Shown in pieces: positions 9,247-51,854 of a stretch of 64,000 bases of DNA; the stretch's first letter is position 1; the number at the start of each line of letters is the position of its first letter. The notes beneath the pieces are model-generated. The model saw only the letters and a list, made by a program, of their open reading frames with translations, did no database searches and was not told where the DNA came from. This stretch comes from Lentilactobacillus sp. SPB1-3 (GTDB taxonomy: Bacteria; Bacillota; Bacilli; Lactobacillales; Lactobacillaceae): the NCBI RefSeq assembly GCF_026913205.2, contig NZ_CP168151.1:1736001-1800000 (forward strand), given 5' to 3'. The position numbers and the translations under genes were made by a program.

Positions 9247-9822
9247 CTATTGCATATACCGGGTAACGATATCGGCAAGGACACTGGCAATTTTTTCTGG
9301 ATCTGTTTTATAATCATGGTCTTCAAAGTCAAAGTAAAAATTAATGACGACTCCCACCAATGCCGCATAACTATGTTCAGGCGCAACTCCGCGAATACGA
9401 ATAATGACCGGTCGCCAATGTTCATAAAATTCAGGATTTTGATTAGTCATGTTTCTTAAAACAGTGATTTTACTGCTATTGATCAATAATAATTTCACTT
9501 CTTGATGGTGGTCTTGAACGAATTTAAATAATGCAGAAAAATAAGTTTTGACTAACTGATGCGTATCTCCGAGTGAATCGCCACCAGTGACTGGATAGTC
9601 ATGCTTGATTTGAATGATCTGTTTGATAGTATTTTCTTGAACTTTTTCTAACAGATCATACTTATCAGTATAGTAAGAATAAAAAGTTGTTCTGTTAAGA
9701 CCAGCTTCATCTATAATCGATTTCACGGTTATCTTATCAATGGTTTGTCGATCTAATAATTTAAAAAGCGCGTTTCTTATCTTTATTTTGGTGCGCTGTA
9801 CCCGCTTATCATTATCATTCAT
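9247..9822 (-). CDS. TetR/AcrR family regulator
   Basis: 191 residues. The N-terminal DNA-binding domain (about 8-55) has the TetR pattern: IRNALFKLL, then the helix-turn-helix TVKSIIDEAGLNRTTFYSYY and YDLLEKV. The C-terminal ligand domain is divergent, as in the YbiH/DhaS-like lactic acid bacterial group. A TATAAT box lies upstream at 9857-9862 (minus strand). Probable targets are its own gene and the downstream glycosyltransferase; the inducer is unknown. Confidence 0.85.
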   Translation of the reverse strand: MNDNDKRVQRTKIKIRNALFKLLDRQTIDKITVKSIIDEAGLNRTTFYSYYTDKYDLLEKVQENTIKQIIQIKHDYPVTGGDSLGDTHQLVKTYFSALFKFVQDHHQEVKLLLINSSKITVLRNMTNQNPEFYEHWRPVIIRIRGVAPEHSYAALVGVVINFYFDFEDHDYKTDPEKIASVLADIVTRYMQ

Positions 9823-9914
9823 AAAAAATTATTCCTTTTTTTGCTAATTAACCAACATTATACTACATTGTGTTGTTGAAATGTTTTACCTAAATGCCTA
9901 GAATAGTTTTAGTG

Positions 9915-9930
9915 AAACGGTAAACCGTTT
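9915..9930. promoter_or_regulatory. 16-base palindrome, possible TetR operator
   Basis: AAACGGT and ACCGTTT form perfect seven-base arms around a two-base centre, the size and symmetry of many TetR-family operators. It lies about 50 bases upstream of the -10 box of the TetR gene, which is further than usual for autoregulation, so the assignment is tentative. Confidence 0.35.
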
Positions 9931-10049
9931 TTTCATAATTCCCACATACTAAAGACATCGTTTTAATTGTGATATTTGTAAAGACCATCAACGGTCAGTG
10001 ATAACATGTCCATTGTGAAATCACTTATTCAATTGACGATACTTCCTTA

Positions 10050-10268
10050 ATTTTGTTAGCGACCGGCTCCCCACCGGACATGTTTCGTCTATATCATATA
10101 CGTTTCTGGAATGCCATCTCATTACCTACTTTCCAGAACTCCCCCAATTTATTTGATATTCTTTATAGTAATAACTATAGACACTACAAGCACTTACCGA
10201 AACAGCTAACAAAATGCAAGATAAATAAAAGCACTAGCGTGGATTCCCCTCCACTACTAGTGCTTTTT
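10050..10268 (+). ncRNA. Candidate C-rich small RNA
   Basis: The gene-free stretch 9823-10290 holds three C-rich motifs in the plus orientation: CCGG-CTCCCCA-CCGG (10063-10077), an unpaired CTCCCCCAATTT (10139-10150) just after a long-loop stem TTCTGGAA/TTCCAGAA (10104-10138), and a strong terminator whose loop is TTCCCC (10228-10268). A weak promoter (TTGTGA, GATACT at 10038-10043) would start it near 10050. The 76-codon frame crossing this stretch runs through the terminator and has no ribosome binding site, so I take the region as non-coding. The motif pattern resembles the two RNAs at 39.9-40.3 kb. Ends are estimates. Confidence 0.4.
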
Positions 10269-10270
10269 TG
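10228..10270. terminator. Strong terminator, active on both strands
   Basis: AAAGCACTAG with CTAGTGCTTT, a small internal bulge, then GTGGA/TCCAC closing a TTCCCC loop. T runs occur on both sides, so it can end both the candidate plus-strand RNA and the SpoIIM-like gene on the minus strand. Confidence 0.85.
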
Positions 10271-10290
10271 TATTCTAACTTAATTACTTA

Positions 10291-10884: not shown

Positions 10885-10934
10885 AATCTTCCCCTCCTTA
10901 CATGTTGATATTATAAGACATTTTATGGCAAAAC

Positions 10935-16035: not shown

Positions 16036-16059
16036 TGTATCTCCCCCAAAGATAATCAA

Positions 16060-20343: not shown

Positions 20344-20358
20344 TAAAAAGTCGAGTGA

Positions 20359-20447
20359 CACATTCCCTACGCAAGTGTTGGCTTACAGGTTCAAAGGGAT
20401 CGAGTTGTTCAAACTCATCTCAGCTGCTATGGCAGCACCCCTAGTGT
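20359..20447 (-). ncRNA. TPP (THI) riboswitch aptamer
   Basis: The minus strand shows all conserved blocks in order: GGGGTGC, GCTGAGATGAG, CCCTTTGAACCTG, then CTTGCGTAGGGAATGTG. The outer helix CAC...GTG closes the aptamer. It precedes the thiM-thiD-thiE genes and a terminator, so TPP binding should stop transcription. Confidence 0.95.
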
Positions 20448-20477
20448 TTAACTAGTTATTCTATTTATACTATAAGA

Positions 20478-24358: not shown

Positions 24359-26203
24359 TTATTGATTATCAAATTTTTGATACAACTTATCAAAATTAAT
24401 TGTTCCTAGACCAGTAGCCTGATTATATAACTTACCTGGTTGGCCTGTGTAATAAAGATTATTATTGTTCTTATCACTATCTAAGACATTAAATGGGGTA
24501 TCTGGTTGAACCGCAAACCGATAAATTTGTGGATTCCAGAAACCGACTGGTTGAGATAACTTACTATTTAAATCTGCATTAGCTGCAGCGATTTGTGGGG
24601 AAGCAAAACTAGTCCCACCATCAACCATCCAGGTAGTTTTATTTTTACCCTTCTTATTTGTGAATGTGGCCACTGTTGCATAACCGGTACGAATATCTGA
24701 GTTAGCTGAAACATCAGGCATATTGCGACCAGAACGCTTGCCAGTAATCATCTGTGGATCGTGATTTAACACAAAACGACCATCTTTATAACTCAGTAAT
24801 TTAATCGCTCTGAACGTGCCAACTCCTGAAACACCAGCTTGGTATCCTGGAAGAGGATTTAAAGTTGAAAATCCGCCACCGCCGCCGGCAAACATACCAG
24901 CCTTTAATTCAAGACCATCAAGACTGTAAGTATCCCCCCAAGCTCGTTCTTGTTGAACGTTAATCAACTTACCACTAACCACACTTTCATATGGCAGTGT
25001 GGTTCCACCAACATCAGTTACATACGGTGAACCAGTTGGGAAGTCATGCTGTTCTTTACCACTTAATGAGTTGATATCATATGGTCCGTGATCTCCAGCA
25101 GCATTGAACACAGAAATTCCTTGTAAAGCCGCCTGCTTAAGTAATTGGTTAAACGCATTGTTATATTGCCGAGTAGTACCACTTTCACCAGCAACATACT
25201 TTAATCCTTCGGTACCAGCACCAAAACTAGTTGATATTTGTTTATCAATATTGTCATTGATTGCCTTAGCAAAAGTCGTATATAAAGCGGCATTGCCAGT
25301 GATATTATCATTGACTGAATCACCGATATACACATCAATGTTAGCCTTAGGTGCAACTGAACTAGATTGCTCAACATCTAATGAAACCTCAAGTTGACCA
25401 ATATACCTGTCTGTCGATACCCTTCGACTATAGATTTTATTCATTGCCGCCGCTGATGAATAAACATAGTGATTATGAATACGACTAGTGTCTCCAGATA
25501 ACCCATTTTGTTTCAGATAACGACTTACATCGGGTTTACGATAACTACTTAGAGCAATTAAACCGACAGATTGACCAGAACCATCAGCACCGTTATTGAT
25601 CATATTGGTTAAATTATACCGATCAGTAAACTTCTTAGCACCATATTTTTTAGAAAATGTAGTGGCACTTTGGTTAATATTAGGCTTTTGATCAGTTGGT
25701 TGAACATGGGTAGTGAACTTACCGGAAGTCTTGCCCTTTGGCCCTTGTAAGCCAATTACTGTCAATGTCTGGCTGCTTAATGACTTAGGTAAAGAAGTTT
25801 TGGTATAAGTATATGATCTATGCTTCGCATTCTTAGCCTTAAAAGCCTTAATTAAGTTACTCCGAGTCCCAGTGACTGTGAGCACTAAATTACTGTTAAT
25901 CGCTTTAGAAGATAAATGATATTTTTTAAAGTATTTTTGAAACTTATTAACGGTTGCGTTACTTTGACCATAATTTTGTTTGAATTGATCGGTTGATAAA
26001 TACTGATGATACAGTGGCGAATTAGGATCAGTAACATCAAGGACACGATTCGTTAAATCACCGGAATTTCGCGCTTTTAAAACTACCGTTGTTGTCGTAG
26101 TCTTTGCCTTAGCAGCATACGCAACACGGTTGGCCGAAATTACCCCCAGTAGAATTGGCACCACAAATAATGGTGCCTTAAGCATTTTTTTATTCATTAT
26201 CAT
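24359..26203 (-). CDS. Secreted S53 (sedolisin/kumamolisin-like) protease
   Basis: 614 residues. A signal peptide (about 1-31) is followed by the pro-kumamolisin activation domain (about 35-165) and the catalytic domain. The sedolisin residues are present: Glu272 and Asp276 (EVSLD), Asp371 (AAGDHG) and the nucleophile Ser532 (GGTSFASP). A C-terminal calcium-site-like segment with YNQATGLGTINF fits the family. Sedolisins are acid-active endopeptidases, which suits an acidifying organism. Self-processing is expected after secretion. GGGGAG ribosome binding site; either ATG 26203 or 26197 may start it. Monocistronic. Confidence 0.9.
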   Translation of the reverse strand: MIMNKKMLKAPLFVVPILLGVISANRVAYAAKAKTTTTTVVLKARNSGDLTNRVLDVTDPNSPLYHQYLSTDQFKQNYGQSNATVNKFQKYFKKYHLSSKAINSNLVLTVTGTRSNLIKAFKAKNAKHRSYTYTKTSLPKSLSSQTLTVIGLQGPKGKTSGKFTTHVQPTDQKPNINQSATTFSKKYGAKKFTDRYNLTNMINNGADGSGQSVGLIALSSYRKPDVSRYLKQNGLSGDTSRIHNHYVYSSAAAMNKIYSRRVSTDRYIGQLEVSLDVEQSSSVAPKANIDVYIGDSVNDNITGNAALYTTFAKAINDNIDKQISTSFGAGTEGLKYVAGESGTTRQYNNAFNQLLKQAALQGISVFNAAGDHGPYDINSLSGKEQHDFPTGSPYVTDVGGTTLPYESVVSGKLINVQQERAWGDTYSLDGLELKAGMFAGGGGGFSTLNPLPGYQAGVSGVGTFRAIKLLSYKDGRFVLNHDPQMITGKRSGRNMPDVSANSDIRTGYATVATFTNKKGKNKTTWMVDGGTSFASPQIAAANADLNSKLSQPVGFWNPQIYRFAVQPDTPFNVLDSDKNNNNLYYTGQPGKLYNQATGLGTINFDKLYQKFDNQ

Positions 26204-39827: not shown

Positions 39828-39855
39828 TTCACAAAATCTTCACAATTCGTTCATA
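39828..39855 (+). promoter_or_regulatory. Three TTCACA-type direct repeats with 11-base period
   Basis: TTCACA at 39828, TTCACA at 39839 and TTCATA at 39850 are spaced exactly 11 bases apart. Such one-turn direct repeats are bound by OmpR/PhoB-type response regulators. The third repeat could serve as -35, 18 bases from TATATC (39874-39879), giving a start near 39886 for the first C-loop RNA. Confidence 0.5.
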
Positions 39856-39885: not shown

Positions 39886-40021
39886 TAATGAAACAGAAGC
39901 ACATGTGCATCTGTGTGGTTATAAATTAAATCCCCCTTTAATTTATTACTTTTATATTCATATTCTTCCCCTAGAATATAGGTATCTTGAAGATAAGACA
40001 TCCCCGTGTCTTATCTTTTTT
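39886..40021 (+). ncRNA. C-loop small RNA, copy A
   Basis: Three successive perfect hairpins, all with six-base C-rich loops: ATAAATTAAA/TTTAATTTAT around TCCCCC (39921-39946); ATATTCT/AGAATAT around TCCCCT (39960-39979); and the terminator AGATAAGACA/TGTCTTATCT around TCCCCG (39991-40016), followed by T7. The T run only on this side fixes the plus strand. The 69-codon frame over it lacks a ribosome binding site. The 5' end is an estimate. The build, with repeated UCCC loops, resembles Listeria LhrC RNAs that pair with Shine-Dalgarno sequences. Downstream is a related second copy. Confidence 0.7.
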
Positions 40022-40109
40022 TGTGCCCAAATTTTGAACAATTATCATCTTCACAAAAAAAACATATTTTCATCGTTGTTTGTTAACAGTTATTGTGTAT
40101 TATTTAAAT

Positions 40110-51627: not shown

Positions 51628-51854
51628 AAAAAAAGTCCCTACTGCAACAAAAGTTACAGTAGGGACGAATTAATTATCCGTGGTACCACCCAAATTAAGC
51701 CAAATAAATTAGCTCACTCACTAGATGGTAACGGTTCTAGTTATTTTCCGAATGACATCCACGGTATTTGGTTTAACTGCCCTGACCGGTTCGCATCAAC
51801 CACCGGCTTTCTTACGCCCAGACAATCAAACTACTTAAATGTGAATTCGTCATT
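51628..51854 (-). ncRNA. T-box riboswitch, probable Tyr specifier
   Basis: Stem I is bounded by AATGAC/GTCATT (51854-51849 with 51756-51751). The T-box core GGGTGGTACCACGG is at 51690-51677, and a terminator GTCCCTACTG/CAGTAGGGAC with T7 follows (51666-51628). In the specifier loop the sequence AAATACC leaves TAC (Tyr, 51766-51764) as the most likely codon, though it is followed by C rather than the usual purine. It precedes the NhaC transporter. Confidence 0.88.

What the first reader, a model, noticed from the sequence alone, without database searches (positions are those of the whole stretch)
10050..10268. Possible third C-rich small RNA at 10 kb
The 468-base gap between the TetR gene and the SpoIIM-like gene carries CTCCCCA between CCGG arms, an unpaired CTCCCCCAA, and a terminator whose loop is TTCCCC. 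The terminator has a T run on the plus strand as well as the minus. This is the same logic as the RNAs at 40 kb but with different stems.
Basis: inference. Interest (0 to 1): 0.6.

Follow-up and report, generated by a model that had tools for sequence, protein, structure and literature searches.

The report
TetR-linked C-rich-loop small RNA gene
The gap next to a TetR-type regulator gene in this lactobacillus very probably encodes a folded regulatory RNA of about 220 to 360 bases whose exposed runs of C could block the start sites of messenger RNAs; it is a good new example of a known kind of small RNA, with what may be a private regulator beside it.

Summary
All three C motifs lie where stated, unpaired, in a plus-strand fold far more stable than shuffles (z -7.1). 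The locus is syntenic in 3 of 24 genomes held for the genus (Lentilactobacillus, by one named member). In all three the fold recurs, 12 of 50 consensus pairs carry changes on both sides (0 of 500 shuffles), and C runs stay at the three sites plus a fourth upstream.

A sigma-A-type promoter with 17-base spacing is conserved on the plus strand at 9876-9904, so the RNA probably starts near 9911 and is about 360 nt. Between it and tetR lies a palindrome found exactly once in each of the three genomes. TetR orthologues occur only in the genomes that hold the RNA.

Best reading: a trans-acting RNA that blocks Shine-Dalgarno sites with several C-rich loops, like Listeria LhrC or Staphylococcus IsrR, switched by its divergent TetR. 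Structure, strand and conservation are shown by computation; transcription, TetR control and targets are inferred. The 40-kb RNA resembles it in logic only: it is in 24 of 24 genomes.

The parts
9247..9822 (-). TetR-family regulator gene (191 aa), divergent from the RNA
   Evidence: Pfam TetR_N 28.0 bits, cut-off 24
9852..9878 (.). palindromic operator candidate CCAACATT-N10-GTGTTGTTG between the divergent promoters
   Evidence: exact match once in each of 3 genomes, only at this locus; arms kept, centre changed in G001; alignment
9876..9904 (+). sigma-A-type promoter TTGAAA-17-TAGAAT
   Evidence: 10 of 12 consensus (10 sites found in the region, 7.8 expected in shuffles); G023 TTGAAA-17-TAAAAT, G001 TTGTAA-17-TAGAAT in the alignment
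9910..10271 (+). predicted full RNA, about 360 nt (start inferred from the promoter)
   Evidence: folds of -84.1, -86.7, -94.1 kcal/mol in three species; z -5.7, -7.4, -4.3 on +
9915..9930 (+). 5' hairpin P0, AAACGG/CCGTTT
   Evidence: G023 AAACGAC/GTTGTTT, G001 AGCAAC/GTTGTT
9937..9943 (+). fourth C motif AATTCCC, identical in 3 of 3
   Evidence: unpaired p of the C run 0.95 in the window, 0.54 in G023, 0.09 in G001
9957..10040 (+). 5' domain closed by ATCG..AATTG / CAATTG.CGAT with two inner hairpins
   Evidence: weak on its own in the window (region 9910-10048, z -0.8)
10051..10214 (+). core domain: closing helix P1 10051-10060/10205-10214, adjoining P3 10081-10087/10198-10204
   Evidence: covariance model R1 finds it in 3 of 24 genus genomes at E below 1e-26
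10063..10077 (+). P2 hairpin with C-loop CTCCCCA
10104..10138 (+). P4 hairpin TTCTGGAA/TTCCAGAA, the helix with most compensatory changes (6 of 9 pairs)
   Evidence: helix 3
10139..10147 (+). single-stranded CTCCCCCAA
10164..10179 (+). P5 hairpin TATAGT/ACTATA
10227..10269 (+). intrinsic terminator with C-loop TTCCCC and T6 tail; may also serve the convergent SpoIIM gene
10889..10897 (-). SpoIIM Shine-Dalgarno GGAGGGGAA, 9-base complement of the terminator loop; possible target in this species only
   Evidence: one of 4 sites in the own genome; not kept in G023 and G001
16041..16049 (-). TTGGGGGAG before a 71-aa small membrane protein gene, 9-base complement of CTCCCCCAA; candidate target
   Evidence: kept in G023

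Best explanation
The gap encodes, on the plus strand, a structured non-coding RNA (core 10051-10269, probably about 360 nt from near 9911). Its stems hold three, probably four, short C runs unpaired. It most likely acts in trans by pairing these runs with G-rich Shine-Dalgarno regions and blocking ribosome entry; several redundant motifs let one RNA serve several messages. Its promoter faces away from tetR, and the TetR protein most likely represses both through the palindrome between them, releasing the RNA when TetR binds its unknown ligand. Shown by computation: fold, covariation, strand preference, exposure and conservation of the C runs, co-occurrence with tetR, uniqueness of the palindrome. 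Inferred: transcription, start point, TetR binding, targets, direction of control.
For: Fold z -7.1, 0 of 200 shuffles. Same fold in three species, each about -60 kcal/mol on its own, though DNA identity is 76-80% to G023 and lower to G001. 12 of 50 pairs with changes on both sides against 5.3 +/- 1.7 in shuffles, 0 of 500; at most 2 in slid controls. Strand: consensus energy -42.0 on + against -37.6 on -, and A.C cells 3 on + against 14 on -, with similar G.U counts of 16 and 15; full-length z better on + in 3 of 3. C runs conserved and exposed. Conserved promoter spacing. TetR orthologues (70 and 58% identity; next best 29%) only in the two other genomes with the RNA, while SpoIIM relatives occur in three further genomes without it (6 of 24 in all). 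Palindrome exact only here in 3 of 3 genomes. No conserved reading frame in the RNA. Precedents for the mechanism: LhrC (PMC4132741) and IsrR (PMC9410917), passages read.
Against: No expression data. Only three sequences, all from one genus; the controls do not fully remove relatedness. The minus strand also folds better than shuffles (z -4.2, -5.8, -1.1). The 5' region is not exceptional in the window itself (z -0.8), so the start is uncertain. The fourth C motif is predicted paired in G001 (0.09). Target evidence is thin: over 26 genes with orthologues, cognate RNA-mRNA pairs are no better than cross-species pairs on average (difference 0.0, sd 1.22), and the SpoIIM match is not conserved. 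The tetR frame is broken in G023, so control there may be lost, or the draft is in error. The palindrome could serve tetR alone.
Confidence: 0.62

Rival explanations
1. Long untranslated region: the structured stretch is the 3' end of the SpoIIM message (minus strand), or only a bidirectional terminator with chance stems beside it.
For: The terminator is T-rich on both sides and the minus strand folds well.
Against: SpoIIM relatives in 3 further genus genomes lack the RNA and the tetR neighbour; consensus fold and A.C counts favour +; a + promoter with conserved spacing lies upstream.
Confidence: 0.12
2. A structured RNA gene that does not act by antisense: the C loops bind a protein or a small molecule, or the RNA is a leader or riboswitch-like element.
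For: The closed multi-branch core (P1 with P3, P2, P4, P5) is larger than a pure antisense RNA needs; no target is proven.
Against: No open reading frame follows it in cis on the plus strand (SpoIIM is convergent); what stays constant is C runs in loops, which is the mark of Shine-Dalgarno-pairing RNAs (PMC4132741); no Rfam match.
Confidence: 0.17
3. A dedicated antisense control of the neighbouring SpoIIM gene: the terminator loop UUCCCCUCC pairs with its Shine-Dalgarno GGAGGGGAA.
For: 9 of 9 complementarity; the 9-mer occurs only 4 times in the 1.93-Mb genome, once in the RNA gene itself; duplex -17.4 kcal/mol.
Against: Falls to -10.4 in G023; in G001 the G-rich site is AAAAGGGGGTAAG, where by eye no more than five G.C pairs form; the adjacency was noticed after the fact.
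Confidence: 0.15

Closest known systems
LhrC sRNAs of Listeria monocytogenes (PMC4132741; search listing and passages read)
   Different: Multicopy (five homologues) and controlled by the two-component system LisRK. Here single-copy in the own genome, with a closed multi-branch core and a TetR gene beside it. No Rfam match here.
IsrR of Staphylococcus (PMC9410917; search listing and passages read)
   Same: Three conserved single-stranded C-rich regions among stem-loops and a terminator; blocks translation starts.
   Different: Controlled by Fur; no long-range closing helix of this kind is described in the passages read.
csRNAs of the CiaRH regulon, Streptococcus (PMC3091779; passages read)
   Same: sRNAs with complementarity to Shine-Dalgarno and AUG, with a discrete promoter and terminator.
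   Different: 51-202 nt, driven by CiaR through TTTAAG-N5-TTTAAG, two stem-loops with an unpaired region between them.
LuxT (TetR family) repressing the Qrr1 sRNA in Vibrio (PMC8043402; passages read)
   Same: A TetR-family protein represses an sRNA gene by binding its promoter.
   Different: In the passages read qrr1 sits next to luxO, not next to luxT; Qrr1 is a sigma-54-dependent quorum-sensing sRNA.
C-loop RNA at window 39905-40026
   Same: Several hairpins with C-rich loops and a C-loop terminator (read).
   Different: About 120 nt, in 24 of 24 genus genomes, often in 2-3 copies, best copies mostly 90% or more identical; different stems and upstream region.

Membership tests
C-rich-motif, Shine-Dalgarno-pairing sRNAs of Firmicutes (a functional kind, not a homology family) | UCCC-type motifs in loops or single strands, conserved among relatives | tested here: met
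   3 of 3 homologues
C-rich-motif, Shine-Dalgarno-pairing sRNAs of Firmicutes (a functional kind, not a homology family) | discrete transcription unit with promoter and intrinsic terminator | tested here: inconclusive
   both predicted and conserved; terminator scan reported none; no transcript data
C-rich-motif, Shine-Dalgarno-pairing sRNAs of Firmicutes (a functional kind, not a homology family) | pairing with and control of target messages | tested here: inconclusive
   candidates only; experiment needed
LhrC, csRNA or any other family held in Rfam | match to a family covariance model | tested here: not met
   no match at gathering score in the gap; only chance-level matches to unrelated families at E up to 10
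TetR-controlled sRNA (as LuxT-qrr1) | TetR protein binds the sRNA promoter and changes its transcription | not testable with these tools
   palindrome position, uniqueness and co-occurrence only

The most novel reading that the evidence does not exclude
A self-contained two-gene switch: a one-component TetR sensor whose only target besides itself is a large structured multi-motif RNA, so that one ligand signal is turned directly into translational control of many messages. The pair is inherited or lost together.
Probability: 0.35. Interest if true: 0.6.

Novelty: new member of a known kind. Interest (0 to 1): 0.45.

Why it matters
Few regulatory RNAs of the lactobacilli turned up in the papers searched. 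A conserved, covarying RNA with exposed anti-Shine-Dalgarno motifs next to a probably private TetR gives a small system in which signal, switch and RNA output could be tested together, and its restriction to 3 of 24 species beside the genus-wide 40-kb RNA would let one ask how such RNAs are gained and lost.

Tried and rejected
Rfam at gathering and at E up to 10: no usable match in the gap. Plasmid collection: no match. A coding reading: small frames exist but are not shared by the three species. A near promoter at about 10013-10043 was considered and dropped, as it is not kept in the alignment. Wider search: model R1 found 2 of 301 family genomes, both in the genus (stricter filters; G023 gave no row there, so it was evidently not drawn). 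In the genus 6 of 24 genomes had a match at E up to 1, of which three (G000, G023, G001) are real and three (G003, G012, G010; E 0.34-0.69) are taken as chance, as is a second weak match in G001. DNA search hits in G020 and G046 (24 and about 45 bases) were taken as chance. Target searches gave candidates only: the shuffle control (0 of 200) also destroys the C run, and cognate against cross-species pairing showed no general signal. In one search the helices were read off plus-strand folds, so its 7 G.U to 0 A.C count is biased, and one G001 terminator helix was entered in a wrong register; the strand argument rests instead.

Full report
Where it is. The gap 9823-10290 separates a TetR_N gene and a SpoIIM gene, both on the minus strand, so anything on the plus strand runs away from tetR and towards the end of SpoIIM.

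The fold. The plus strand of 10040-10275 folds to -60.3 kcal/mol, 7.1 standard deviations below its shuffles. A ten-pair helix, TTTTGTTAGC 10051-10060 with GCTAACAAAA 10205-10214, closes the core; its 3' strand runs straight on from that of P3 (TGTTTCG 10081-10087 with CGAAACA 10198-10204), with the CCGG hairpin P2 let in between on the 5' side. Inside P3 lie P4 (TTCTGGAA/TTCCAGAA), then the free CTCCCCCAA, then P5. The terminator follows at 10227-10269. The minus strand folds well too, as inverted repeats must, but less so (z -4.8).

Relatives. DNA search found the locus in G023 (76% over the gap) and in part in G001. In G001 it lies in the same place between tetR and SpoIIM. Folded alone, the three give the same architecture at -60.3, -60.0 and -58.9 kcal/mol. 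In a plain sequence alignment, 12 of 50 consensus pairs have a change on both sides, 5.3 +/- 1.7 being the shuffled value (0 of 500) and 0-2 the slid values; 89.9% of 148 cells pair. P4 alone has 6 such pairs of 9. These controls do not fully remove relatedness, and three sequences are few. A covariance model from the three finds them and no other convincing place in 24 genus genomes or in 301 family genomes drawn.

Strand and limits. Folding the alignment in both senses gives -42.0 (+) and -37.6 (-), with 3 and 14 A.C cells at similar G.U counts. Upstream, TTGAAA-17-TAGAAT (9876-9904) is kept with its spacing in all three species while the spacer changes. From it the RNA would start near 9911 and include the hairpin P0, which changes sequence but pairs in all three, and an invariant AATTCCC. 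The 5' region as a whole is less convincing: z -0.8, -2.7, -3.5. The promoter scan finds about as many sites as shuffles (10 against 7.8), so conservation, not the match, is the argument.

C runs. In the window RNA all four C runs of three or more are predicted unpaired (0.95-1.0); in G023 1.0, 0.89 and 1.0 for the three main runs and 0.54 for the upstream one; in G001 1.0, 0.82, 1.0 and 0.09, with four further C runs of its own. No G run of three or more occurs in the window or G023 RNA; G001 has two.

TetR link. The best TetR relatives outside the own genome are the syntenic ones in G023 (70%) and G001 (58%); the next in 24 genomes is 29%. So tetR and RNA are together in 3 of 24 and absent together in 21 of 24, whereas SpoIIM relatives occur in 6 of 24. 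A palindrome, CCAACATT-N10-GTGTTGTTG at 9852-9878, touches the -35 box of the RNA promoter. With no mismatch it occurs once in each of the three genomes, always here; with up to two mismatches there are 7 places in all. That the TetR binds it and represses both sides is inference from how divergent TetR genes usually work (general knowledge). In G023 the tetR reading frame is split, which is either loss or a draft error.

Targets. The complement of CTCCCCCAA, TTGGGGGAG, occurs 12 times in the own genome, 10 in G023 and 14 in G001. Of the 36 places 30 were read: many are 23S rRNA copies (recognised from recall of the sequence) or the RNA gene itself. The one start-site match shared by two species is before the 71-aa membrane protein gene at 16041 (G000 and G023). 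Over 26 window genes with a Shine-Dalgarno in all three species, the pro-kumamolisin-type protease gene at 26203 scores best (-18.5, -14.4, -21.9 kcal/mol; cognate better than cross by 3.9), but the mean over genes is nil. The adjacent SpoIIM site is a 9-base match that occurs 4 times in the genome, one of them in the RNA gene itself, but it is not kept in relatives. These are leads, not results.

Compared with what is known. The layout, one C motif in a hairpin loop, one in a single strand, one in the terminator loop, is that described for LhrC of Listeria (PMC4132741, passages), and the IsrR paper (PMC9410917, passages) makes the general point that in AT-rich staphylococcal genomes G-rich stretches are infrequent outside Shine-Dalgarno sites. 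It works like these; it is not a member by sequence, as no Rfam family matches. TetR control of an sRNA has a precedent in LuxT-qrr1 (PMC8043402, passages). I found no report of this RNA in the papers library, which lacks most subscription journals.

Verdict. I rate a plus-strand RNA gene at about 0.85, the Shine-Dalgarno-blocking mechanism at about 0.6, TetR control at about 0.6 (my own estimates).

Noticed in passing
window 39905-40026 (+): C-loop RNA found in 24 of 24 genomes of the genus, often two or three copies, best copies mostly above 90% identity, without an Rfam match: a genus-wide sRNA family worth its own study.
   Followed up: partly
window 39828-39855: TTCACA/TTCACA/TTCATA at 11-base spacing upstream of the 40-kb RNA, like the direct repeats bound by OmpR/PhoB-type regulators (recalled), and a looser set near 40051-40078.
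   Followed up: no
window 51640-51845 (-): Very strong minus-strand fold (z -9.4) ending in GGGTGGTACCACGG and a terminator upstream of an antiporter-like gene: looks like a T-box leader (motif and gene type recalled), although Rfam gave no match at gathering score.
   Followed up: partly
G023:C1:154407-154978 (L165): The tetR orthologue is read in two frames with stops in one of them: broken gene or draft error.
   Followed up: no
L121 about 1144-1620 (G001:C1 near 570064 and 570421): Two intergenic TTGGGGGAG sites in G001, each before a tiny reading frame.
   Followed up: no
window 20346-20452 (-): TPP riboswitch, 64.9 bits, upstream of what look like thiamine genes.
   Followed up: no
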